A DNA stretch of 64,000 nucleotides. It comes from Liolophura sinensis (Eukaryota > Mollusca > Polyplacophora > Chitonida > Chitonidae). The stretch covers positions 16,807,501 through 16,871,500 of the forward strand of contig NC_088303.1 in the NCBI RefSeq assembly GCF_032854445.1. The letters are read 5' to 3'. Made by a program: the position numbers and the translations under genes. This document shows positions 1-51,200 of the stretch, piece by piece. Every line of letters starts with the position of its first letter. Position 1 is the first letter of the stretch. The notes below the pieces were generated by a model. That model saw nothing but the letters and a program-made list of their open reading frames with translations, had not been told where the DNA came from and ran no database searches.

Positions 1-672
1 GGATGGACACCTCTGACTAGACATCCACAACACACAGAAAACAGGGATCGACACCTCTGACACTACATCTACACCAGTACACAAGACAGACCACTGGGAT
101 GGAAATCTGTAACAGTACATAAGACAGAACACTGGGACAGATATGTGTGACAGTACACAAGACTGATCATTGGGATTGACACCTGTGACAGTACAAAAGA
201 CAGAACACTGGGATGGACACCTGTAACAGTACACAAGACAGAAAACTGGGATGGACACCTGTAACAGTACACAAGACAGAAATCTGGGATGGACACTTGT
301 AACAGTACACATGACAGAACACTGGGATGGACGTCTGTGACAGTACATAAGACAGAACACTGGGATAGACACGTGTGACACTACACAAGACAGAACACTG
401 GGATAGACACGTGTGACAGTACACAAGACAGACCACTGGGATGGACACCTATAACAGTACACAAGACAGAACACTGGGATGGACACCTGTGACAGTACAC
501 AAGACAGAACACTGTGATGGACGTCTGTAACAGTACACAAGACAGAACACTGGGATGGACGTCTGTGACAGTACACAAGACAGAACACTGAGATGGACAC
601 CTGTAACAGAACACATGACAGAACACTGGGATGGATATCTGTGACAGTACACAAGACAGAACAATGGGATGA
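1..672. repeat. 38-bp minisatellite array
   Basis: About 17 copies of a 38-bp unit run from the window edge to about 672. The unit core is ACAAGACAGAACACTGGGAT. Copies differ by scattered substitutions such as GTAACAGT/GTGACAGT and GGACACCT/GGACGTCT. Open frames across it are repeat artefacts. The array probably continues to the left of the window. Confidence 0.95.
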
Positions 673-798
673 ACAATGGAGATTTAGGTACACTGAACAG
701 AACAGCTGAAAAGATTAGGAACAAAGACAACGGAATCAAAATTTTCTGAATTTCTTTTTGTGTTAAGTTCATGTTTGAAACTCACACAGCTTCAGGAT

Positions 799-7864: not shown

Positions 7865-7992
7865 CTGTCACTTGCTGTGGATTGGTCTCTTGTCCTGTGG
7901 TGGAGCCTGTTACTATAACACCATCACTTTGGAAAAACTCTGCAGCCTTGGCAGTCTCCACCAAACTCACATCCTCTGTAATGGCATGTGAA
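7865..7992 (-). CDS. BtpA-family gene, exon 5
   Basis: Acceptor gccaacag precedes 7992; donor gtaaca follows 7865. The 128 nt begin with the third base of a serine codon split with exon 4 and end in phase 1. They encode the conserved helix and strand TAKAAEFF...DGVIVTGSTTG, the family's signature phosphate-loop-like region. Confidence 0.9.
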
Positions 7993-10900
7993 CTGTTGGC
8001 AACACATAAAATGTGCTTTATCACTATTCATCATATAGTACTGTTCTACTTTACTTAAGTCGAATAATACTCAATAAATACGCAACTTTGATATTTAAAT
8101 TTACTCCGCACTTGCCATAACAGAACAGTACAAGTACTGGTCATCCCCTGTTAGTATGCTGTGACTGAGTAGGCATCATACCTGGTGTCTTCAGTATGTT
8201 GTTCATGTGAGGCAGCGTTATAAGTCTGTCATGCTGAAAGAAGCCTTCTACAAGTAGGCGGTGTAGTGATATGGCCACAACATAATGCTGTGGTGTTAAT
8301 CCGCAAACAAACACTTCTCAACATGGTGAGTGAATGAGTGCTTGAGGTTTAACGTCGTACTTAACAATTTTCAGTCATATGACGATGAAGGAATCCTTAG
8401 AGTGCATGTAATTTGCCTCCTTGTCGCAAGACAGATTTCCATCGCTCGTTTACCTTGTGCAGCCTCGCTGAGAAGCCTTACCGAAGGCAAGTAATTTGCC
8501 CTGCCCAATACTGATACGGGTCAACCAGTCGTTGCACTATCCCTTCCATGCTGAACGCCAAGCGATGAAGTTACAACTTCCTCTTTTAAAGCCTTAGGTG
8601 TGACCTAAGCCAGGATTGACCCTGGATCTAGTGATCCCGAAGCGAACCAACGGTGCTATCAGGGCCAGAGTCTCAACATGGAAAATGTTTTTTGTTGATT
8701 TTTTTATCCATGGGGATGAGGTTATTAATAGTAGAATGTACCAATGTACTTTGACTGACAAGGTAAATCTTTTATGGAGAGAACAGCATCAACAACTAGG
8801 GTGGCTATTAAGAATACCCCAATAAAAGCTTATGACAGTCCTCATATTTCTTACCTATGTTTTTTCTTGATATCTGTGAGTACCTGTACATTGTCTGCTC
8901 CAATGTGTCTTCTGTACCTGAGTAGTTCTCCTGCACAGGAGTTCATCAAGCCCTCGTCAGCTATATGAGAAAACACAAACCCCTCTGCACGGAGAAACTG
9001 AAGGCCTGATGGATGAAAGGGCACAAAATTTCATGACAAAGTCATTCAGATAAATAAAACCTCATAACTCTTCTGCCAATAAAAGAAAACAGTTTAGATA
9101 ATTTTAAAACTACATTCAGTATGTCTCCAGACCTCCTAACAGTTCGGAAATACAGATGTATTTTGTGAATGTTCTGAGTGAGTACACTTAAATAAAAGAG
9201 GAAATAGAAACAATACCACAGCCCTTTGGTGTTTTGTCTTTTACGCCGTATTCAAGAATATATCACTTATACGACGGCCACAGGCAATATGATGGGAGGA
9301 AACTGGGCAGAGCCCTGGGGAAACCCACAACCGTCCAGAGCTTGCTGGCAGACTTTTGCAAGTACAGCCAGAGAGGAAGCCAGCATTAGCTGCATTGGTG
9401 AGAGGCTCTCGAGTCATTGCACTGGCACACTAACCACCTCGGCCCCAGTCCTTGTTAGTACTTGGGAATAATACCACAGCCATTGGTGAAACTTGGAAAC
9501 AATACTACGTTACATGGTGGTATTTGGAAAGAAAATTATGTTAAATGGTGGTACTTGGAAACCATACTATGTTACATAACGGTACTTGCAAACAATACCC
9601 AGTCCATGGTGGTACTTGGAAACAATACCCAGTCCACGGTGGGTATTGGAAACAATACCCAGTCCATGGTGGGTACTTGGAAACAATGCCCAGTCCATGG
9701 TGGTACTTGGAAACAACACTATGTTACATAACGGTACTTGCAAACAATACCCAGTCCATGGTGGTACTTGGAAACAATACCCAGTCCATGGTGGGTATTG
9801 GAAACAATACCCAGTCCATGGTGGGTACTTGGAAACAATGCCCAGTCCATGGTGGGTACTTGGAAACAATGCCCAGTCCATTGTGGTACTTGGAAACAAT
9901 ACCCAGTCCATGGTGGTACTTGGAAACAATACCCATTCCATGATTTGTCTGGTTTAGCTGAGGGATACTGGAAGTATTTGTATCTATAATATAGCTATGC
10001 CACCCTTACACTATGAGAAACTATGAACAACAGTTGTCAGCACACCAATGTACAGTCAGGGTAAGTGATCTGGAGGCCATACGTACATCTAGATATGAGC
10101 TCACCTTAAGATCACCTAAATGTAACCCAGCAAGAAACTACTTGCATGTGAGCCCATGACATGAAGGCCACTATTATGTGGACCTGTGTAGAGGCCATTT
10201 ACTTGTATATGTGAGACTGTGTGGAGACCATTTACTTGTAAATGTGAGCCTGTGTGGAGACCATTTACTTCTATATGTGACTCTGTGAGGAGACCATTTA
10301 CTTGTGTATGTGACCCTGTGAGGAGACCATTTACTTGTATATGTGAGACTGTGTGGAGACTATGTACTTGTATATGTGAGACTGTGTGGAGACCATTTAC
10401 TTGTATATGTGAACCTGTGTGGAGACTATTTACTTGTATATGTGAACCTGTGTGGAGACCATTTACTTGTATATGTGAACCTGTGTGGAGACCATTTACT
10501 TGTATATGTGAACTGTGTGGAGACTATTTACTTGTATATGTGAACCTGTGTGGAGACCATTTACTTGTATATGTGAACCTGTGAGGAGACCATTTACTTG
10601 TATATGTGAACCTGTGTGGAGACTATTTACTTGTATATGTGAACCTGTGTGGAGACCATTTACTTGTATATGTGAACCTGTGTGGAGACCATTTACTTCT
10701 ATATGTGACCCTGTAATGAGACCATTTACTTGTATATGTGACCCTGTGAGGAGACCATTTACTTGTATATGTGACTCTGTGAGGAGACCATTTACTTGTA
10801 TATGTGACTCAGTGAGGAGACCATTTACTTGTATATGTGACTCTGTGAGGAGACCATTTACTTGTATATGTGACTCAGTGAGGAGACCATTTACTTCTAT

Positions 10901-13900
10901 ATGTGACTCTGTGAGACCATTTACTTGTATATGTGATCTTACTAATAAGCCACAATAATATGGAGGAAACTTTCTTCTATACACAACCACTTACATCTAC
11001 TTATATACATGTAGGTGAGACCATGCACTTACATGTGAGTCTATTTGGAAATAACTTACATGTTCCTCCCAATAGCTTGCTGCCATCTTATAAGTGAAAC
11101 ATGCTTGAGTACGGCGTAAAACCCCAATCAAGTAAATAAATAAATAAAATGTGTGGGGGTCTCCGTGGCTGAGTTGGTTAGCACGCCAGCGCCATTCAAT
11201 GACCCAGGCGACTCTCACAATGTGGTCTCTGTGAGTTCAAGTCCAGCTCATGCTGGCTTCCTCTCTGGCTGCAAGTGGGAAGGTCTGCAGGCAACCTGCA
11301 GATGATAGTGGGTTTCCCTGGGCCCAGTTTTCTCCCAACATAATACTGGCCATGGTCGTATAAGTGAAATATTCTTGAGTACGGCATAAAACACCGATCA
11401 AATAAATAAACAAGTATATGTGAGCCCGTATGGAGATAACTCACATGTACTTGTGAGGCCACATGGAGACCATATACTTGTACATGTGAGCCCATGATGT
11501 GGTAACCCTACACTTACATTTTACATATCAGCCCACATGGAGACCATTTACATGTAGATGTTTACCTGCAGCCTGTGCCACAGCCAGAGATTGTTTGTTT
11601 GCCCCAGCCAGGATTTGAACTCCTACTGGACCTCTTGTGAAAACCTGGCGGACACTGTAACAGATGGTTGTCATGGCAGCAGTTATCTCTGGTCCTACCC
11701 TGTCAGTGAGTAAGTACGGCATGTCATGCATGTTCTCCACCAATACCGCATCCTAGAAATAAATCAAAATCAAAATCTGAAATCAAGACATAAACAGCTT
11801 AATTCCATATTTCACCTACAGTCTAGTATGTAAAAATGCATTTTCAGAGGACCATTTTTATTTGTTATATATATATATCGATCTTCAATTATCACCATAA
11901 AAAAGACTGCTTTATTTATTTATTTAATGATTTATTTATTTCATTTTTGATTATATACATGTATGTACTCAAACATTCCAAAGAGAAGGTACAAATTACA
12001 TGAATGGCTGAAATAATTTATAAATGATTGGGCCTAATGCACACATATGCGAGTGTAGTTATGAAAGTATGCCTATATTAAAGACCATCTACTAGTTTAT
12101 TTTGCAGTGTACTGGTAGGTACACCAATCCAGCTCAGCTGAACAGACCCATTTAGTCACCACATTTCCAATAATGCATATGTAAGTACATGTCGTAATAA
12201 CCCAGACAAATCATTCCGAAAAAGTGGAGGCACTGGGTCAGTAGGCCACATGTAGAAAACAGCCTCTAATAGATACCAGCATGCCCCACCCCCAACACAG
12301 ACACACAGAGGCTTACAGGCTTACAGTGCATGAAGTGTGTAGACTCACACAGGACATAATCACTTCAACACATGTTACAGTGATACATGTACTCATGGAA
12401 GGCAAATCTGCCCAGATGACATTCAAGTTTTTTTTCACAAGCTGACAAAAGTCTAAGGGTTAAAGTAGCCACCTCAAGCTACAAGTAAACACTTGCCATT
12501 TACTTAACTACCTTTTTAAATGATATAGTCTAGTTTGTAAGCTTAAGTACCATAATTCTTCAACGTTTTCAACCGCCTTTGTGACCAATATTTGGAAACA
12601 TTCTCAGAGTACTATGGTGTGTAGAGAAATAATCTGTACAGTTTTATGAAGCGTGCATCTTTAGTGACACAAAGGAATCATTTTACTGTCATTTTTATAA
12701 TAATGTAAGCATAAATTCCACCGCAAAAGCAATTTAGAGGTTGTAAATTTTGAAGATCTACAGTGTATAACTGAATGTGTATGTCTACCATACAGATGTA
12801 TATATATACACCATATTGGTGGAACATTATAAGGCACACATGGCTATCCACACAAGTGTCATCTAATACTGTCAGCAAGATCCCACAAGCAGTGAGAATG
12901 GGGGAATCTACCAAAATTCCCTGTTCAATGCTAGGCCTGAAACCACACCTTGTGTGTCCTGACAGACAAGTGCCTTAATCAGTAGGCCACGATCAGCTCT
13001 CACTTGGAAAATGATTGAATAGTTCAGCGAGAGATTTTAATAAGAGAATAATGTAATAGTTGATGTATATGTAGTACCTGACATACCATTTCTTTAGTTA
13101 TTATTTGATTTAATTTACAAATATGTAGCTATTTACATGTACAAGTGAACTATTTGTAAAAATTATATAAAGACGATGGCATGCATTTTTTTTTATTTGA
13201 TGGCTTATCTGTTTATGTGTGGGGGCGTGGAACTGAAAAGAGGCATGAAAAAGCTACAATGAGTCACCACATACCTGACAAAACCAGCCAAAAATGATTG
13301 GAAGTCAAGCAAAACCAAATTTGTTTTTGGCCTGCACCAATTTCAGTTCCCACCACTATGCAACATGTGGGGCTGTGACCAAATGATGCTGAAGATAGAG
13401 ATCTCTGTGTAACTTATGTAAGACCCTGGTACCATACATAACCCAGTGTCATACTGAACAGCTAATTGCCCCCAAGCATCTGGGCCTAATGAAGGATGCA
13501 GAAGTAGGTGTCCCCTCAGTGTTTGGGATTTTAATTCCACTTGAGTAACACAACTAATGATAAGGTCCATCAGTAATGTGGTGAAGTGACTTTCACACAC
13601 ACACTTCTACAGCTAATTAACAGATACTCAATTTCCACCCTTTTTGTTTAAATTACTTTCAAGAGGTTTCACTGATGGGTAAAGCGATGATGCATGCACT
13701 AAACAGGTGCCATAATTACAGAAAGCATTTCTGCCAAGTCATTGAAATAACTGCTTCTTTTTATCTCATTTTTAATTATAACAATTGTAGAAATGTGAAC
13801 TTCTTGTATCTCTATACGGGGGGTCTACATACATGTATACCTCAGACGTGTCAGCGCCTATCTTCACCTGCTAGATGCATATGCCACTCATAGAAAGCAC

Positions 13901-16900: not shown

Positions 16901-19900
16901 AGATCTGTACCAGGCAGTTGTGTCACCCAGATCTCGATATATCGAGATCGCAGATCTTTACCAGGCATTTGTGTCACCCAGATCTCGATCTATCGAGATC
17001 GCAGATCTTTACCAGACAGTTGTGTCACCCAGATCTCGATCTGTCGAGATCGCAGATCTGTACCAGGCATTTGTGTCACCCAGATCTCGATCTATCGAGA
17101 TCGCAGATCTTTACCAGGCAGTTGTGTCACCCAGATCTCGATCTATCGAGATCGCAGATCTTTACCAGGCAGTTGTGTCACCCAGACACCACTTCACCTC
17201 CTCCTTGAACCCAACACCACATACGCACTGCCTCCATATACGTGTGTGAGAAATATCTTATGAATATGTGCTCCATCACTAAAATTTACTGAGAAAGAAG
17301 GAAGAAGTTTAGTGAAGTAGGAGGATTCTAACTTACCACCCCACATTGCTGATAGAGACTGGCTTCCTGGCAAGCTTTCTCAACGATTTCACTCATACTG
17401 AACTTCTGGGCTGGTGTACCTGCAACATACTAACACAGTCTCATTCAGTTTGAGCTTTTGGCCCTGTGTGCCTGCAAAACCTAATGCAGTCTCATTCAGT
17501 GTGAACTTTTGGGCCAGTGTGCCTGCAACATAATAATACAGTCTCATTCAGTGTGAACTTTTGGGCCAGTGTGCCTGCAACATAAAAATACAGTTTCATT
17601 CAGTGTGAACTTTTGGGCAAGTGTGCCTGCAACATAATAATACAGTCTCATTCAGTGTGAACTTTTGGGCCAGTATGCCTGCAACATAATAATACAGTCT
17701 CATTCAGTGTGAACTTTTGGACCAGTGTGCCTGCAACATAAAAATACAGTTTCATTCAGTGTGAACTTTTGGGCCAGTGTGCCTGCCACATACTAATACA
17801 GTCTCATTCAGTGTGAACTTCTGGGCCAGTGTGCCTGCAACGTAATAACACAATCTGACTCACGCAGAACTTCTGGGCCAGTGTGCCTGCAACATAATAA
17901 TACAGTTTCATTCAGTGTGAACTTTTGGGCCAGTGTGCCTGCAACACAATAATACAGTCTCATTCAGTGTGAACTTTTGGGCCAGTGTGCCTGCAACATA
18001 ATAATACAGTCTCATTCAGTGTGAACTTTTGGGCCAGTGTGCCTGCAACATAATAATACAGTTTCATTCAGTGTGAACTTTTGGGCAAGTGTGCCTGCAA
18101 CATAATAATACAGTTTCATTCAGCGTGAACTTTTGGGCCAGTGTGCCTGCAACATAATAATACAGTCTCATTCAGTGTGAACTTTTGGGCCAGTGTGCCT
18201 GCAACATAATAATACAGTTTCATTCAATGTGAACTTTTGGGCCAGTGTGCCTGCCACAAACTAATACATTCTCATTCAGTGTGAACTTTTGGGCCAGTGT
18301 GCCTGCAAGATAATAACACAATCTGACTCAAGCAGAACTTCTGGGCTGGTGAAAATGTAACATAATTACTCTATCTCACTCACGAGGAACTTCAGGGTCT
18401 GTGCACCTGTAACATAATCTCATAATCTCATCCATGCGGAACTTCAGTTCACCTATAGCATAATCCCATAATCTCACTCATGCGGAACTTTTGGGCCATT
18501 TCACCTGCAACATAATCCCACAATCTCACTCATGCTAAACTTCTGGGCCAGTGTGTCTGTAAATGTCTGTAAGTGTGTCACAATAAAGGGTGGGTGGTCA
18601 CCCAGTCATCAATGTGTCCTGAATGTTGTGTGAATGTCACAATGAAGGGTGGGTGGTCACCCAGTCATCAATGTGTCCTGTATTATGTGTGAATGTCACA
18701 AAGAAGGGTGGGTGTTCACCCAGTCATCAATGTGTCCTGTATTATGCGTGAATGTCACAATGAAGGGTGGGTGTTCACCCAGTCATCAATGTGTCCTGTA
18801 TTATGTGTGAATGTCACAAAGAAGGGTGGGTGTTCACCCAGTCATCAATGTGTCCTGTATTATGTGTGAATGTCACAAAGAAGTGTGTGTTGTCACCCAG
18901 TCATCAATGTGTCCTGTATTATGTGTGAATGTCACAAAGAAGTGTGTGTGTCACCCAGTCATCAATGTGTCGTATATTATGTGTGAATGTCACAATGAAG
19001 GGTGGGTGGTCACCCAGTCATAAATGTGTCCTGTATTATGTGTGAATGTCACAAAGAAGTGTGTGTTGTCACCCAGTCATCAATGTGTCGTATATTATGT
19101 GTGAATGTCACAATGAAGGGTGGGTGGTCACCCAGTCATCAATGTGTCCTGTATTATGTGTGAATGTCACAATGAAAGGTGGGTGGTCACCCAGTCATCA
19201 ATGTGTCGTATATTATGTGTGAATGTCACAAAGAAGTGTGTGTTGTCACCCAGTCATCAATGTGTCCTGTATTATGTGTGAATGTCACAAAGAAGGGTGG
19301 GTGTTCACCCAGTCATCAATGTGTCCTGTATTATGTGTGAATGTCACAAAGAAGGGTGGGTGTTCACCCAGTCATCAATGTGTCCTGTATTATGTGTGAA
19401 TGTCACAATGAAGGGTGGGTGGTCACCCAGTCATCAATGTGTCCTGTATTATGCATGAATGTCACAATGAAGGGTGGGTGGTCACCCAGTCATCAATGTG
19501 TCCTGTATTATGTGTGAATGTCACAAAGAAGGGTGGGTGTTCACCCAGTCATCAATGTGTCCTGTATTATGTGTGAATGTCACAATGAAGGGTGTGTTGT
19601 CACCCAGTCATCAATGTGTCCTGTATTATGTGTGAATGTCACAAAGAAGGGTGGGTGTTCACCCAGTCATCAATGTGTCCTGTATTATGCGTGAATGTCA
19701 CAATGAAGGGTGGGTGTTCACCCAGTCATCAATGTGTCCTGTATTATGTGTGAATGTCACAAAGAAGGGTGGGTGTTCACCCAGTCATCAATGTGTCCTG
19801 TATTATGTGTGAATGTCACAAAGAAGTGTGTGTTGTCACCCAGTCATCAATGTGTCCTGTATTATGTGTGAATGTCACAATGAAGGGTGGGTGGTCACCC

Positions 19901-22900
19901 AGTCATCAATGTGTCCTGTATTATGTGTGAATGTCACAATGAAGGGTGGGTGTTCACCCAGTCATCAATGTGTCCTGTATTATGTGTGAATGTCACAATG
20001 AATGGAGGGTGGTCACCCAGTCATCAGTGTGTCCTGTATTATGTGTGAATGTCACAATGAAAGGTGCGTGGTCACCCAGTCATCAATGTGTCCTGAATGT
20101 TGTGTGAATGTCACAATGAAGGGTGGGTGGTCACCCAGTCATCAATGTGTCCTGTATTATGTGTGAATGTCACAATGAAAGGTGGGTGGTCACCCAGTCA
20201 TCAATGTGTCCTGTATTATGTGTGAATGTCACAATGAAGGATGGGTGGTCACCCAGTCATCAATGTGCCCTGTATTATGTGTGAATGTCACAATGAAGGA
20301 TGGGTGTTCACCCAGTCATCAATGTGTCCTGTATTATGTGTGAATGTCACAATGAAGGGTGGGTGGTCACCCAGTCATCAATGTATCCTGTATGGAGTTA
20401 GAATGTCACAATGAAGGGTGGGTGGTCACCCAGTCATCGTCCAGTGTCCTGTATGTTTTGTCACAACAGGTGGGTCAGGCAAACATTTTGTCCTATATGG
20501 TGTGTGAATGTCACAATGAAGGGTGGGTCAGGCAACATTTTGTCCTGTATTGTGTGTGAATGTCACAATGAAGGGTAGGTCAGGCAACATTTTATCCTAT
20601 ATGATATGTGAATGTCACAATGAAGGGTAGGTCAGGCAACATTTTGTCCTGTATGGTGTGGGAATGTCACAATGAAGGGTGGGTCAGGCAACATTTTGTC
20701 CTATTTTGTGTGTGAATGTCACAATGAAGCAGTATGGTTATCACCTTCCAGACTTCTGTACAACTTACTTGTACTTAAATTCAAGTAACTGAGAAGAATC
20801 CTAAATTTTACAATAGAGTTGATTTTAGACAATGCTACCATTGTTTAATTTTAGACCATTGGTGACCGAGACACGACTGAGTCATTATGTTAGAACATGT
20901 TAGCATGCTAACCACTTGGTTAATGAGTCCCCATTTTTTAATCAAAGACTTCCCGTCAAAGCTTGATGTAATATACATGTACTATTGCTATTACAGTCAA
21001 AGCCTACACTGTCTCTTCTCTCACTGATACATTATTACACATACCATTGCCACTAGTCAAAGCCTACAGTCTCTTCTCTCACTGATACACTATTACATGT
21101 ACCATTGCCACTACAGTCAAAGTCTACACTGTCTCTTCTCTCACTGATACATTATCACGTGCCATTTCCATTACAGTCAAAGCCTACACTGTATCTTCTC
21201 TCGCTGATGTACCATTACATGTACTAATGCCACTACAGTCAAAGCCTGCATTGTCTCTTCTCTCACTGATACACTATTACATGTAACATTGCCACTAGAG
21301 TCAAAGCCTACACTGTCTCTTCTCTCACTGATACACTATTACATATACCACAGCCACTACAGTCAACACCTACACTGTCTCTTCTCTCACTGATACACTA
21401 TTACATGTACCATTGCCATTACAGTCAAAGCCTACACTGTCTCTTCTCTCACTGATACACTATTACATGTACCACTGCCATTACAGTCAAAGCCTACACT
21501 GTCTCTTCTCTCACTGATACACTATTACATATACCATTGCCACTACAGTCAAAGCCTACACTGTCTCTTCTCTCACTGATACACTATTACATGTACCACT
21601 GCCACTACAGTCAAAGCCTACACTGTCTCTTCTCTCACTGATACATTATTACACGTACCATTGCCACTAGTCAAAGCCTACACTGTCTCTTCTCTCACTG
21701 ATACACTGTTACATGTACCATTGCCACTACAGTCAAAGCCTACACTGTCTCTTCTCTCACTGATACACTATTACATGTACCTTTATTGATCAAGCCAGGC
21801 ACCCTGAAATGACCTTCGACTTTCATTTCCTCACGCATGGCAGGTTTGAACTCAACGTGCCATGAACAAAACAGAACATATATTGATAAAATAAAGTCCC
21901 GCTTTTGATGTCTATTCAAACACACTTGTTCAGAACAAATCGTACTGAAGCTGAGGCTGGGTATTAAAGAAATCGCAAAAACATCATCAAATGTTCAAGG
22001 TACAACAACACAAAATGACCAATCAAGTTTGACAGGGGGTTAAGAGCTCTACTTGAAATATTGAATAGTACAGCATATGTATACTCACTTCTTTATGCAT
22101 TTGACTACATACTGTGTTATTGTTTGCTTGATAGGTCTAATGTCATACTCATAAATATTTTGCTTACACAAAGAATGCCATGCATCTATATCAGGAATGG
22201 GAACAACTGAGCTGTTTTACAGGGTACTCAAACATATTTCCAGTCAGAACAAGGCATTTGCTTCTGGATAATAACTTCTTATTTATTATACACGACATTT
22301 CAGTTAATGCAGATACTAGCATCAATATTGCATTATTAACATTAGTACATTATATTTAATATACATGCACTGTATACTGATGTTAATAACTTGATGTAGC
22401 ATCAGCAAAATGAAATCGGGTTCAAGGGACAAAAAGGCGTCCTCCATAACCAAATTGCCTTGCTCTAATTCTTCTTCTGATGTGGTCTTTCCTGTCTATC
22501 AGTACGACAGAAGCCATTGTTGTGGGTGGGGAAATCAGGGTAGAGCCCTGAAAAAATCATACAATTGTCTGACAGCTCAGCCAATGGGAAGTGGGAAGTG
22601 GGAAATGAAGCATGTGACCTCAAGGGTCAAATTGACCGCTTTGGTGGCCTAACTCTTACAGTGTCCACCTCGAAGTCGGGAAGCCCGGGATTAAGCCTGG
22701 GTCAGGTCATACCAAAGACCTTACAAATGATACTTTACAAATGATACTTGTGTCAGTATCATGTGACTGGGTGGGGTGTCATATGTCTGGTGTCTTCAGC
22801 ATGATACTTCAGTGGCGCCAGCACTTTAGCAGCATGGTCTCGCCCTGCCACAAGAAGACACAGTATATGTACACACACCTAACGAATTGTCATATTACAG

Positions 22901-25900: not shown

Positions 25901-26875
25901 TTTGGAAAATACTTGATGCTGAGACATTCTTCATTTGGGGACTGGTACATTTCCCACATTACACAAAAAAAGTAAGTAGCTAAGTTTGTTTTATAAATGT
26001 ACATGTTGTCTTAAACTTTAACTTTTCTATTGCTTCAAATATCTTCATAAAAGTAATCAATGTGGGTAGGTAATGATTCAACTATCCACTTAAACTAAAA
26101 TCGACTGTCAAATGTGAAATATCCCTATTAAAAAGTGGGAATCAGTAACGCTTTAAACGTTAAATGAAACAGGTCATGTTCAGATTAATTCTTAAACTAC
26201 CTTTATGCTGGTATGCTTATGTTTATGATCAATACCTTGTATGAATTTTCCAACTGTTCTATGGACAGATTTTTCTAATTGGACGTCTGATAACAAATGC
26301 ATGTGCATGGGTGTTTGTAAACAAATATGACATCATTTGTTTGTGATGAATATATGATAACGACTGATAATTATAACTGATGATAAAATAGCACAATGTC
26401 ATCAAAATATAAAGGCATGACGAGACAAGACGTCCAATTTATTTCTTGTGCAAGTCCCAGGACGGACCCAAAACAATTAAAAAGTAGGGCTCTATAGAAG
26501 ATAATTTTGCCAGGCACCAGGTAAGTTTAAGACTTGGCATTATTATCTGAAGGAACGCACGAGTGACAGATCCGATATTGGAACACATCGTGGCTTGGTA
26601 GCTACATCGAGTCACCAAAACATGTATCTAGTTAGCTTAATGCTGTTACTCATGCATGCCGTGGTGCACATGTTGTAACTTGCCACATGGCCACACACGT
26701 ACGTCGCCCGAACTAAACAATCATCACAGATCAAGTAAGTAACGTGACATGCCCAGAATAGATCGGCTCACCATGGATTGGTGCTATGATTGACATTACC
26801 TGGCAGTGCCTGGGCGTGAACCATTGCAATCACAGCCGGAGATATTCGCCCTAACAGAAATTGACAGGCAGCCAT
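7865..26875 (-). CDS. BtpA-family (F13E9.13-like) protein, 3' end not found
   Basis: Five exons join in phase: 26875-26800, 17419-17337, 11752-11566, 9005-8855, 7992-7865. They give 208 residues. Family blocks in order: VIAMVHAQALPG (residues 14-25), DAVLVENMHDMPYL (54-67), GPVGVQILAGAN (about 94-105), FLRAEGFVF, ADEGL, AGELLRYRR, DIKKKHS, TAKAAEFFQSDGVIVTGSTTG (near the end). These match the BtpA family, a TIM-barrel group named for a cyanobacterial photosystem I assembly factor. Animal members are annotated as F13E9.13-like, putatively mitochondrial, with no established reaction. About 60 C-terminal residues including the GSGVT loop are missing; their exon is unrecognised or left of the window. 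The start at 26875 has a strong context (AAGATGG). The frame is open upstream to 27043 and could add a basic, presequence-like extension. The gene is head-to-head with cyclin E. Confidence 0.9.
8326..8668 (-). repeat. tRNA-derived SINE (family B), near full length
   Basis: On the minus strand a tRNA-like head has an A-box match (TAGCACCGTTGG) and a B-box match (GGGTCAATCC), followed by a ~250-bp body ending in GACGTTAAACCTCAAGCACT. A second copy in the same orientation lies at 52596-52950, and a 3'-end scrap is near 29232. Confidence 0.8.
8855..9005 (-). CDS. BtpA-family gene, exon 4
   Basis: Acceptor ccatcag before 9005, donor gtaaga after 8855. The 151 nt start in phase 1 and end in phase 2. 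Residues FLRAEGFVFSHIADEGL and AGELLRYRRHIGADNV are classic BtpA blocks. A closer AG seven bases inside (cttcag) would break the frame from exon 3, so the outer acceptor is chosen. Confidence 0.92.
9224..9462 (-). repeat. tRNA-derived SINE (family A)
   Basis: The complement shows the family A order: tRNA head with B box, GCTGGCTTCCTCTC segment, GGTTTCCTCC core, and the CTTGAATACGGCGTAAAA end. This copy is diverged (about 80% by eye to the others) and lacks a clear TAAATAAA tail. The central domain resembles the Meta-SINE type seen in bivalves; that name is from memory. Confidence 0.8.
9468..9945. repeat. 30/31-bp minisatellite with 152-bp higher-order unit
   Basis: The unit GGTACTTGGAAACAATACCC + AGTCCATGGT repeats about 15 times. 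A block of five units starting at ACTATGTTACATAACGG (9566) repeats at 9718, giving a 152-bp higher-order period. Long open frames on both strands here are artefacts. Confidence 0.93.
10184..10938. repeat. 33-bp minisatellite array
   Basis: About 23 copies of a 33-bp unit (core GTGTGGAGACCATTTACTTG + TATATGTGAACCT). The unit length is divisible by three, so long false ORFs appear on both strands. Decayed copies continue at 10990-11060 and 11412-11560, on either side of SINE insertions, and reach the donor site of BtpA exon 3. Confidence 0.95.
11062..11148 (+). repeat. SINE family A, 3' end only
   Basis: A truncated copy: TTCCTCCCAATAGCTTGCTG, then ATAAGTGAAACATGCTTGAG, GGCGTAAAACCCC and a TAAATAAATAAA tail. 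It lies directly upstream of a full copy in the same orientation. Confidence 0.8.
11150..11412 (+). repeat. SINE family A, full length
   Basis: Complete element with A box TGGCTGAGTTGG (11166-11177) and B box GAGTTCAAGTCC (11233-11244). The central domain is GGTTTCCCTGGG...TTTTCTCCCAACATAATACTGG, and the 3' end is GTATAAGTGAAATATTCTTG plus an A/T tail. It is inserted inside the decayed part of the 33-bp array. Confidence 0.88.
11566..11752 (-). CDS. BtpA-family gene, exon 3
   Basis: Acceptor tttctag before 11752 and donor gtaaac after 11566. The 187 nt begin in phase 0 and end in phase 1. They encode DAVLVENMHDMPYL, VGPEITAAMTTI and GPVGVQILAGANKQSLAVAQ, the strongest family match in the gene. 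Decayed 33-bp repeats start immediately after the donor. Confidence 0.95.
11757..14355. other. BtpA intron 2, unique AT-rich part
   Basis: Low-complexity tracts (poly-T, TTTATTTATTTA near 11915) and a tRNA-like SINE scrap near 12890-12995 (minus). I see no exon with family similarity. Confidence 0.55.
14360..14745. repeat. 49-bp minisatellite, about 8 copies
   Basis: The unit reads AAAACTCATCCCATTTTTGT + GATATGATACTACATGTACG + TGTACTACC. Some copies lack three bases of TACTACATG. It lies in intron 2 of the BtpA gene. Confidence 0.93.
14750..16590. other. BtpA intron 2, unique part with SINE fragment
   Basis: Holds a poly-G tract at about 15027-15040 and a truncated family A SINE on the minus strand at about 16465-16570 (TGTACTCAAGAATA...GCGGCCAGCATTATG). 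A 60-nt stretch flanked by splice-like sites at 15634-15693 is treated separately as a weak cassette-exon candidate. Confidence 0.55.
16595..17188. repeat. 51-bp palindrome-bearing minisatellite
   Basis: About 11.6 copies of a 51-bp unit. Each contains the inverted repeat GATCTCGAT-CT-ATCGAGATC, flanked by further AGATCT sites, then TTTACCAGGCAGTTGTGTCA. The 17-codon period produces false ORFs up to 211 codons. It lies in intron 2, 149 bp from exon 2. Confidence 0.95.
17337..17419 (-). CDS. BtpA-family gene, exon 2
   Basis: Acceptor gttgcag before 17419, donor gtaagt after 17337; 83 nt, phase 1 in and phase 0 out. It encodes (G)TPAQKFSMSEIVEKACQEA and LYQQCGV, fitting the loop and helix after the PG of exon 1. 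Its first ~31 nt are homologous to the 52-bp repeat that starts at its own acceptor. The exon is sandwiched between two arrays. Confidence 0.92.
17389..18565 (-). repeat. 52-bp array derived from exon-2 splice acceptor
   Basis: About 22 tandem 52-bp units. On the minus strand each reads like the end of intron 1 (TATTATTATGTTGCAG) plus exon-like sequence (GCACACTGGCCCAAAAGTTC). The terminal unit (17389-17440) is the real exon-2 boundary, differing from the consensus at about 10 of 52 positions. Units at the far end (18350-18565) are more diverged. Each unit carries a potential 3' splice site. The length of 52 shifts frame once per unit. Confidence 0.93.
18570..20740. repeat. 59-bp minisatellite array, about 37 copies
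   Basis: The unit contains ATGTGTCCTGTATTATGTGT, GAATGTCACAAAGAAGGGTG and GGTGTTCACCCAGTCATCA. Three variant types alternate (gggtgggtgg, gggtgggtgt and gtgtgtt before TCACCC). The last units from 20455 change to a shorter form with GGTCAGGCAACATTTTGTCC. It abuts the exon-derived array directly. Confidence 0.95.
20985..21782. repeat. 62-bp minisatellite, about 13 copies
   Basis: The unit is GTCAAAGCCTACACTGTCTC + TTCTCTCACTGATACACTAT + TACATGTACCATTGCCACTACA. Copies are close to identical. It lies in intron 1 of the BtpA gene. Confidence 0.95.
21783..22635. other. BtpA intron 1, unique part
   Basis: No gene-like frame or recognisable repeat is visible here beyond AT-rich sequence. Confidence 0.5.
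22636..22935 (+). repeat. tRNA-derived SINE (family C), near full length
   Basis: A tRNA-like head (GGTGGCCTAACTCTTACAGT, B-box-like GGGATTAAGCC) is followed by GTCATACCAAAGACC, the TCATATGTCTGGTGTCTTCA body and a 3' end ATGACGTAAAACCCCA. The minus-strand copy at 50068-50375 shares this order. Confidence 0.75.
23700..23970 (-). repeat. SINE family A, full length
   Basis: A complete copy read on the complement: GGCGTCCGTGGCTCATTTGG head, CAAGTCAAGCTCATGCTGGC, GGTTTCCTTCCACCATAATG core and an A/T-rich tail. A short internal deletion removes part of the TGAGTACGGCG box. Confidence 0.88.
24510..24990. repeat. degenerate 22-23-bp tandem repeat
   Basis: About 20 loose copies of TATCAACATTACCTCACCAA. 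Spacing is irregular, and a longer doublet (CATCTCTCTAAGGCCTGTCA) recurs at 24800 and 24841. It is older and more diverged than the other arrays. Confidence 0.85.
24995..26799. other. BtpA intron 1, promoter-proximal part
   Basis: The minus-strand frame across 25349-25816 is open except for one TGA at 25586-25588. It includes WWWKGMLKFGKNSQCASCF and LRTPQGVHTVRSIIASGSEW. I do not recognise it, and it does not fit BtpA. It may be a decayed coding fragment. The rest shows nothing clear. Confidence 0.4.
26800..26875 (-). CDS. BtpA-family gene, exon 1 (coding part)
   Basis: Encodes MAACQFLLGRISPAVIAMVH then AQALP and the first base of a glycine codon; donor gtaatg follows 26800. VIAMVHAQALPG is the N-terminal strand of BtpA proteins. 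The ATG sits in AAGATGGCTGCC, a strong Kozak context and a YY1-type motif. In-frame ATGs at 26986 and 27043 give an alternative N-terminus rich in Arg, Lys and Ser. Confidence 0.85.
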
Positions 26876-48276: not shown

Positions 48277-51200
48277 CTGGAACAACAGAATACCAGTTAG
48301 GCTGAATATAAAACATTTGAATAATAACAAGTTTCAGTTTAGAATAATCAATTACTTTTGCCTGACATTCACAAGGTAGAATCCATTTCTTAGATTACAT
48401 ATCAATCCTAATTTAGAAGATAAGAATATTTAATATAAACTCTGTCAAAAAAAAACGCAACCCCTGTCCTCGGATATCAAAAATTCGTTCGAATAAAGTT
48501 ATTGCTTCCAAACTAAATTTTAGCCAAATGTAATGATATTACACACGTTTTTAATGAAGATTACCGTCCAAACAACTGCCTTTTCTCTCCTAAGTGTATT
48601 TTATTGCTTATGACGTCACAACGCATGAACTGACCCTGTTGACGTCGCACACAGAACCATTCACATGCAAATCATGTCAATGGCAGTTATAGTGTGGGGG
48701 TGTATAAAAGCCCATGTGTTTTCGTATTTTATTCATTCATTCGTCGACGAAAGGCAGTCGGTAAAATGCCGCGACTGAGTGCTGCCGACCGAAATATCGC
48801 CATTGGTCGTCTTCAAGCCGGAGAAAGTTTTAGTACTATTGCACGACACCTAAATGTTCACAAAACAACGATATCCCGACTTTGGAGCCGTTACAACAAC
48901 TTTAATTCGACCAACGATCGCCCGAGAAGTGGAAGGCCAAGAATCACGACCCCACTTCAAGATCGGTACATCCGGGTCCTTCACCTGCGTAATCGGCATG
49001 CCCTACCAACCGTGACTGCCACACAAATACCAGGTTTGAGGAGAGTGTCGGCTCAAACGATTAGGAACCGTCTGAAAGAAGCGGGTTTACGTGCCTGTAG
49101 ACCAGTTGTTGGACCTGTACTACGCCCCTTACATCGACGCCTACGACTCAGGTGGTGCAACAACGTAAGGATATGGACTTTACAAAACTGGAGGCGCATC
49201 TGGTTTTCTGATGAATCCCGTTTTCTTTTGACACGTCACGACGGAAGACAGCGTGTGTATAGGAGACGTCATGAACGCTTTGCGCCCATCTGTGTCCGGC
49301 AGGTGGACAGATTTGGCGGAGGCAGTGTTATGGTTTGGGGAGCCATCTCGTACAACCAGAAATCAGACTTGGTGATCGTTCCAGGGAACCTGACAGCCCA
49401 ATGTTATATCAACCACGTGTTACAGCCTCACCTTCTCCCGATTATTGACCCACAGACACAGCTTTTTCAACAGGACAACGCCAGGCGTCACTGCACGTGC
49501 AACAATGAACTTTCTGCAGGATTCCAACGTCAATGTCTTGCCGTGGCCCTCTAAATCACCAGACCTCAACCCTACTGAACACCTGTGGGATACTCTGGAT
49601 CGACATGTGCGTCAACGTCAGCCACTGCCACAGACGCTTCAACAGCTCGCCGTTGCGTTACAGGAGGAGTGGAGGGCCATTCCCCAGGAGAGAATCCGGC
49701 GTCTTATCCGTTCTTGTCCAAGGAGAGGCCGTGCAGTGATTGCAGCTCGTGGTGGTCATACGAGATACTGAGGAAGACGCCCCCTGGTGAGCAACTGGTG
49801 TCTGTGAGATGACTTTTGAAAAGACAGTTTTAAACATGACCATCTTGATTATTATTCTGCCAAATTTCTGACTTCTGTCTTCAATAAGAAAAAAGTTGTG
49901 CCGTCCTAAAACTAAATATTAAAATCTCTAAAACATGGGGGTTGCGTTTCTTTTTTGACGGAGTTTAATTAAAACGTCATTAGGCAATCCTAACTTAACT
50001 GACATGTCATTCTTTTTTGGCTGTTTTAAAAAAAAATTATCTCCTGAGCTTGTATGTACATATTCATGGAGTTTTTTTTATCATACTTAAATTTTTCGGT
50101 CATATGATGACGAAGAGTCATTGGATGTGTGTATATATACTGTGTATCCTTGTGGCATGGTGAGTATATGCTGTAAGAGTGCTGCCGCCACTGAAATATC
50201 ATGCTGCAGACACCAGACATGACGCCCCACAAAGTTAGATTATACTGACAACGGGCCATTCAATCCTGCTTCCCTGTTTCAAACTCTCAGTGCTCAGCAT
50301 CAAGCAGCAATAAGTACCATTTTTACACTGTTTACTGACTTTGAGGTGGACATTCTAACCGTTAGGCCACCAAAGCAATAGACATGAGCTTGTAAATGTA
50401 TTAAAGTATGAAGACTATGTCTATCTGTCCTTGGGGTTGTGTCCAGGCCGGTAAATGTTCACTATAAAAACACAGCTTCACAATGAGTGATGTTTCCTTT
50501 TTCATTTTGCTATGTGTTTTTTGGCATCAGCTGAACACATTAAACAAAAAATACTTAATTTATTGCAACATAAATTAAGAACTCACTTCAGTAGGATGTG
50601 CTAAAAATGTGTTTTTCTCCACACCACTTTGTTCAGTGGTACTTTCCATCCCTGCCCCACCCTTTGACTTAAGAATGGACTTTGGATGTGTGGGCTGGAA
50701 GAGCTTGTATATGTCAGCTGGGCTGGTAATCTGGGGAGGGTCTGACACCACAGGGTTACTGGAGTTATCTCCTCCTGTTCTGCACAGCTGATCCGCTCCC
50801 TGTCACATGAAACACATCAACAAATAATGGATTATCATTTGGGGTGGGAATGGTTCAAGGATTTACCTGCTTGAGTTTAAGTTCATGTATGCATTTGTAA
50901 CTTGTCTGAAGCAAGTGCTGACTTACAAGGCTGAATGTTCACCTTTCTCACAGCTACACAAGTATTACTCCACCTGGTAGGATCAAAACCAGCAGAAAAT
51001 GGCGTAAGGACTACCTCAAAAATGACAAGTAAGTAAGTCCTGATCTTATTTACGAATACATGGCTAGCATTTCTAATATCTTATGATATGCAGACCTGGA
51101 GTTATCACTTTTTCTTTCAGCTTACAAGTGATTACCTTGTTCATTCATACCCTTGGAGGTAGAAATGCAGAGAGCCTGCAGCAAGTAGAAATGCAGCGAA

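What the first reader, a model, noticed from the sequence alone, without database searches (positions are those of the whole stretch)
17389..18565. Minisatellite built from a gene's own splice-acceptor boundary
The 52-bp array begins exactly over the intron 1/exon 2 junction of the BtpA-family gene. The junction unit and the array consensus agree at about 42 of 52 positions. They align across both intron (ATGTTGCAG) and exon sequence (GCCCAGAAGTTC versus GCCCAAAAGTTC). More than twenty candidate 3' splice sites therefore lie in tandem just upstream of the real one. Use of the nearest repeat would shift the frame (52 is not a multiple of 3), and longer read-through meets a TGA. The array could lower correct splicing or create copy-number-dependent decoy use; that part is inference.
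Basis: partly seen in the sequence, partly recalled or inferred. Interest (0 to 1): 0.78.

Follow-up and report, generated by a model that had tools for sequence, protein, structure and literature searches.

The report
Minisatellite copied from a splice junction
In a chiton gene, the stretch where an intron ends and an exon begins has been copied about 22 times in a row inside the intron, giving a row of look-alike splice sites; the same kind of array turns up at splice junctions of some other genes in this genome, a phenomenon described before in lancelets.

Summary
On the minus strand, the 52-bp array (about 17386-18575) is in register with the intron 1/exon 2 junction of a BtpA-family gene. 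Junction and unit agree at 40 of 52 positions; shuffles reach 28. Of 22 intronic copies 21 keep AG; 12 of 22 match or beat the real acceptor on a rough matrix. Bacterial relatives align through the exon 2 head, so exon gave rise to array. The gene has a second such array, copied from its exon 6 acceptor. The genome is very probably that of the chiton Liolophura japonica. Of 208 exon edges in three other families, 7 carry junction-spanning arrays. Such arrays are known as 'mirages' in amphioxus, where RT-PCR suggests that splicing is undisturbed. This is a new member, in a new phylum, of a known kind. Decoy splicing is possible but unshown: no RNA data. An excess over intron-born arrays is only suggestive: 7 against 1.9 expected, P 0.002; without one gene 4 against 1.7, P 0.084.

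The parts
26800..26875 (-). BtpA exon 1, coding part from ATG (ends ALP|G, donor CAG|GTAATG)
   Evidence: stitched protein
17337..17419 (-). BtpA exon 2 (TPAQKFSMSEIVEKACQEASLYQQCGV), the source of the exonic part of the unit
   Evidence: bacterial relatives align through it
17420..17421 (-). true 3' splice site AG of intron 1 (TTAGTATGTTGCAG|GTACACC), itself part of the terminal array unit
   Evidence: inferred from reading frame and homology, no RNA data
17386..18575 (-). 52-bp array: junction unit plus 22 intronic units, each about 11-15 nt of intron tail plus about 37-41 nt of exon 2 head
18303..18575 (-). degenerate outer units, with a part that resembles the KFSMSEIV codons of exon 2; one unit is 46 nt
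11566..11752 (-). BtpA exon 3
8855..9005 (-). BtpA exon 4
7865..7992 (-). BtpA exon 5
   Evidence: ends read from that sequence
1..700 (-). in-window part of the second junction-born array (44/38-bp units; whole array from about -1061 to about 688). Its source is the exon 6 acceptor at -1039 (C9:16806461), outside the window in L001
10175..10936 (-). 33-bp array in intron 3 whose unit resembles the first ~50 nt of intron 3 including CAG|GT of the exon 3 donor (score 26; 300 shuffles at most 17). It holds at most three exonic bases, so it is not counted as junction-spanning

Best explanation
The array is a 'mirage': a minisatellite born by tandem duplication of a short segment that straddles the 3' splice junction of intron 1 (about 11-15 nt of intron tail plus 37-41 nt of exon 2), which then expanded inside the intron. 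Shown: the register, the resemblance, the coding nature of the source, a second case in the same gene, further cases at acceptors and donors of other genes. Inferred: the duplication was tolerated because the copy joined to the rest of exon 2, the last one, still serves as acceptor, so the extra copies are removed with the intron; the upstream acceptors are mostly silent, with at most rare decoy use that would give transcripts with early stops.
For: Register and 40/52 identity with shuffle controls. Seven bacterial relatives align through the exon 2 and exon 6 heads, with a one-residue gap in the first, so the exons are ancestral. Unit found only at this locus in the genome: 10 places, all in the array. 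Second array with unit = 13 nt of intron + 31 nt of exon 6; the copy nearest the exon matches 31 of 31 exonic bases; its 26 places all lie at that locus. Sample of other genes: 7 junction-spanning arrays at 208 exon edges (chaperonin 4 of 94, DEAD 3 of 74, AAA 0 of 40), each read base by base. Same anatomy published for amphioxus Adh3 and globins, with regular splicing by RT-PCR (PMC3087553, passages), and for TnC and PGBD5 (PMC3902484, passage).
Against: No RNA evidence that the last acceptor is the one used. Twelve of 22 upstream units match or beat the real acceptor on a rough matrix, so silence is not explained by strength at the AG. In the duplicated part of exon 2 only one residue (P28) is invariant across the eight aligned proteins. 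The third-position excess expected of a coding source is weak: 5 of 8 differences in 38 nt between exon 2 and the commonest bases of four outer units. None of 40 AAA edges has such an array. The first duplication is not seen.
Confidence: 0.8

Rival explanations
1. The repeated acceptors act as decoys: part of the transcripts use an upstream AG, giving a frameshift or premature stop, so copy number tunes the amount of correct BtpA mRNA.
For: 21 of 22 upstream units keep AG; 12 of 22 score at or above the real site (10.3), though the nearest one scores less (8.8); all 21 correctly phased units lead to a stop.
Against: Amphioxus mirages with AG/GT in many copies are reported not to disturb regular splicing by RT-PCR. 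No expression data here.
Confidence: 0.2
2. The array came first and exon 2 took its start from it (an exonised repeat).
For: The true acceptor and the 52 nt upstream of it are array sequence.
Against: Seven bacterial relatives align through the exon 2 head (one-residue gap; MSEIV identical in one of them) and through the exon 6 head.
Confidence: 0.03
3. Junction arrays are not a special class: tandem duplications strike everywhere, and those over junctions survive because one copy keeps the gene working.
For: The sample held 35 arrays, 28 of them not verified as junction-spanning. Without gene g5 the excess is 4 against 1.71 expected, P 0.084; in DEAD and AAA alone 3 against 1.01, P 0.071.
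Against: With all loci, 7 against 1.93 expected, P 0.002.
Confidence: 0.5
4. Assembly artefact or wrong copy number.
For: Array copy number can be wrong in any assembly.
Against: The published assembly used HiFi reads averaging 8,347 bp (14x), longer than the 1.2-kb array; the degenerate outer units lie in order next to homogenised inner ones.
Confidence: 0.02

Closest known systems
Amphioxus 'mirages' (Adh3; globins BflGb6 and BflGb9; TnC; PGBD5), PMC3087553 and PMC3902484 (passages seen, not the whole papers)
   Same: Tandem repeats whose unit spans an intron/exon boundary, at 5' or 3' junctions; many copies carry AG/GT; inner copies homogenised, boundary copies not.
   Different: Chiton, not cephalochordate; two acceptor cases in one gene with 22 and about 40 copies, and further genes affected (7 of 208 sampled edges). 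Splicing, polymorphism and somatic instability not tested here.
Human internal tandem repeats in segmental duplications (PMC2812944, abstract and passages seen)
   Same: Minisatellites at exon-intron boundaries that can alter splicing.
   Different: There half the repeats lie in coding exons, and those at boundaries can form novel introns in recent paralogues; here the copies lie in the intron of a gene found once.
Human IFI6/G1P3 minisatellite with repeated splice donors (recalled, comes from no call)
   Same: Tandem repeat supplying many splice sites.
   Different: Donor repeats used in alternative splicing; recalled, not checked.

Membership tests
Mirage (minisatellite-like tandem duplication of an intron/exon boundary) | Repeat unit holds both the intronic and the exonic side of a splice junction | tested here: met
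   16 of 18 intronic and 24 of 34 exonic positions shared
Mirage (minisatellite-like tandem duplication of an intron/exon boundary) | Copies in tandem in the intron, ending at the authentic junction | tested here: met
   22 copies at 46- to 52-nt steps up to 17420; the junction is called from frame and homology
Mirage (minisatellite-like tandem duplication of an intron/exon boundary) | Many but not all copies keep AG/GT signals | tested here: met
   21 of 22 keep AG. In array 2, 9 of 32 listed 44-mers keep AG at the matching place
Mirage (minisatellite-like tandem duplication of an intron/exon boundary) | Does not disturb regular splicing (reported by RT-PCR in amphioxus) | not testable with these tools
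   no RNA data for this species on hand
Mirage (minisatellite-like tandem duplication of an intron/exon boundary) | Length instability between haplotypes | not testable with these tools
   one haplotype held; the BtpA search found exons at one locus only

The most novel reading that the evidence does not exclude
In chitons, splice junctions are a preferred birthplace of minisatellites: by extrapolation from 7 of 208 sampled edges, thousands of exon edges may carry junction-born arrays that lengthen introns, offer ready-made duplicate splice sites for new introns or alternative exons, and vary in copy number between individuals, having arisen independently of the amphioxus mirages.
Probability: 0.35. 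Interest if true: 0.72.

Novelty: new member of a known kind. Interest (0 to 1): 0.5.

Why it matters
Mirages were put forward as a route to new introns from a handful of lancelet genes. Finding them at both kinds of splice junction in unrelated genes of a mollusc suggests a general way for introns to grow and for splice sites to be multiplied, and gives a genome in which the effect of tandem acceptors and donors on splicing can be measured directly with RNA-seq.

Tried and rejected
Chance resemblance: rejected by shuffles and by the best match elsewhere in the window. Exon captured from array: disfavoured by bacterial relatives (7 of 191 matching plasmid records, 20 of which were listed). Dispersed repeat family: units found only at this locus (the tool warns that a missing match does not show rarity). 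Codon-position test of direction: weak, 5 of 8 at third positions; an earlier run had one unit phased a base off and gave 6 of 11 (P 0.088). First placement test, counted 8 of 32 arrays against 1.59 expected (P 6e-5); it included a false case and is replaced.

Candidate junction arrays dropped on reading the bases: the g5 27-bp array begins about 12 nt past a donor (same-strand score 106); the L107 array abuts a donor without clear exon sequence (score 57); the g8 51-bp array stops short of the acceptor. L101 (scores 29-31) is a whole-exon tandem duplication, a different thing. Two weaker same-strand scores, g7 28 and L069 24, belong to no array found at that edge.

Samples: PF00118 gave 50 matches, 47 used, in nine genes; 3 left out (two long open frames at C5 and C6, and a further row at C5). 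PF00270 gave 49, 37 used; 12 left out: four with three or more stops, three in open frames over 600 residues, two near-identical neighbours, one match beside a taken one, two weak rows. PF00004 gave 20, all used. The exon edges are edges of Pfam matches, not annotated splice sites, and exons that the profiles missed count as intron.

Solved structures: three weak matches, none a BtpA protein. Exon 5 was scored one base off, so its matrix score there is not used. Papers on earthworm metallothionein introns and on C. elegans intronic minisatellites (PMC12783039, PMC4039745; passages) did not describe junction-spanning units in what I saw.

Full report
What is there. The window lies at C9:16807501-16871500 of a 609-Mb genome. 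The genome carries eight molluscan haemocyanin units in a row. Its contig count (632), the length of C9 (37,343,639) and of C1 (96,433,062) equal the scaffold count, N50 and longest scaffold printed for the chiton Liolophura japonica (PMC11068029, abstract and passages). The total length differs by about 31 kb (609,464,459 here, 609,495,693 in the table), so the identification is very probable, not proven. The BtpA-family gene is on the minus strand with six exons, five in the window and the last from C9 16806461 downward. The stitched protein matches Pfam BtpA over residues 14-267 of 271.

The array. Reading the minus strand, 22 units lie upstream of the acceptor at 17420, and the junction itself is the last unit. 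Each unit is a short intron tail ending in TTATGTTGCAG or similar, then the head of exon 2. The central units are homogenised; the outer ones (18303-18575) are degenerate but four of the five outermost keep a stretch close to exon 2 around AAGTTC and TGAGTGAGAT. The junction unit and the central unit agree at 40 of 52 positions; shuffles reach 28 at most. Exon 2 alone scores 24 against the intronic array, shuffles at most 21; the highest unrelated exon-array pair scores 22.

Direction. Seven bacterial relatives, taken from 191 matching plasmid records, align through the exon 2 head (with a one-residue gap) and the exon 6 head, so the coding sequence is old and the array is the copy. Conservation inside the duplicated stretch is moderate. 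A codon-position test was weak (5 of 8).

Other arrays in the gene. Exon 6 begins after TGTTGTAG; a 44-bp unit made of 13 nt of intron and 31 nt of exon 6 is repeated, with 38-bp derivatives, over about 1.7 kb. The copy nearest the exon matches 31 of 31 exonic bases. Of 32 listed 44-mers at 27 or more matches, 8 keep TAG at the acceptor place and one more keeps AG. In intron 3 a 33-bp array resembles the start of the intron including CAG|GT.

Other genes. Of 94 edges of 47 chaperonin exons 4 carry junction-spanning arrays, of 74 edges of 37 DEAD exons 3, of 40 edges of 20 AAA exons none. Three of the four chaperonin cases are in one gene, g5. Five are at donors, two at acceptors. In the g5 acceptor case only a few exonic bases are included. 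Same-strand scores of these cases were 68 to 120 in the chaperonin and 78 to 118 in the DEAD sample. Opposite-strand controls stayed at 22 or below, below 20 and below 24. Against random placement 1.93 were expected among 35 arrays and 7 seen, P 0.002; without gene g5 4 against 1.71, P 0.084; in DEAD and AAA alone 3 against 1.01, P 0.071. Exons are richer in G+C than the upstream flanks (0.480 and 0.367), which might favour array birth; that is inference.

How it may work. A tandem duplication across a junction leaves one copy joined to the whole exon, so the gene can still be spliced, and the extra copies become intron. That step is inference, supported by the published results on amphioxus (passages). 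On a matrix made from 68 acceptors that a script picked near 84 exon matches of this genome, the real site scores 10.3, 12 of 22 upstream units score as high or higher, and the nearest unit scores 8.8. For comparison, 126 AGs of an intron 2 stretch have median -1.8 and maximum 11.7. This is rough. Use of a repeat AG would meet a stop (21 correctly phased units). Whether it happens is unknown.

What is known. Amphioxus 'mirages' are the same kind (passages of PMC3087553 and PMC3902484). Of ten literature searches one was for the species; the other nine showed no report from a mollusc in what they listed. Several listings were capped (12 of 13,673 papers, 15 of 33, 10 of 47), and the library holds only open-licence papers, so this is not proof of absence.

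Noticed in passing
window 18576-20729: Two further arrays (59 bp x 31.6 and 52 bp x 5) follow the junction array almost without a gap; their units share TGTCACAATGAAG and flanking letters. No splice-junction source was found for them among the six exons.
   Followed up: partly
window 17780-18360: Rare unit variants recur at a distance of 468 bp (nine units), as if a nine-unit block had been duplicated; the best 300-nt identity at that offset is 0.977, against 0.967 at 52.
   Followed up: partly
L101 400-832: An AAA exon is duplicated in tandem, 261 nt apart. The first match is open; the second holds one TGA, which lies past a likely donor. Possible mutually exclusive exons.
   Followed up: partly
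L049/L050 (gene g5, C8:53.40-53.41 Mb): One chaperonin gene has three junction-spanning arrays, one that starts about 12 nt past a donor and one 123 nt past a match edge. One donor array has a 66-nt unit that, read by eye, would add 22 residues in frame if its donors were used.
   Followed up: partly
window 48643-49771: Long open frames resembling a Tc/mariner-type transposase (by eye; no family search).
   Followed up: no
G000:C99: COX1 recurs seven times at about 15.5-kb steps on one contig, and once on C632: C99 is probably a mitochondrial concatemer left by assembly.
   Followed up: no
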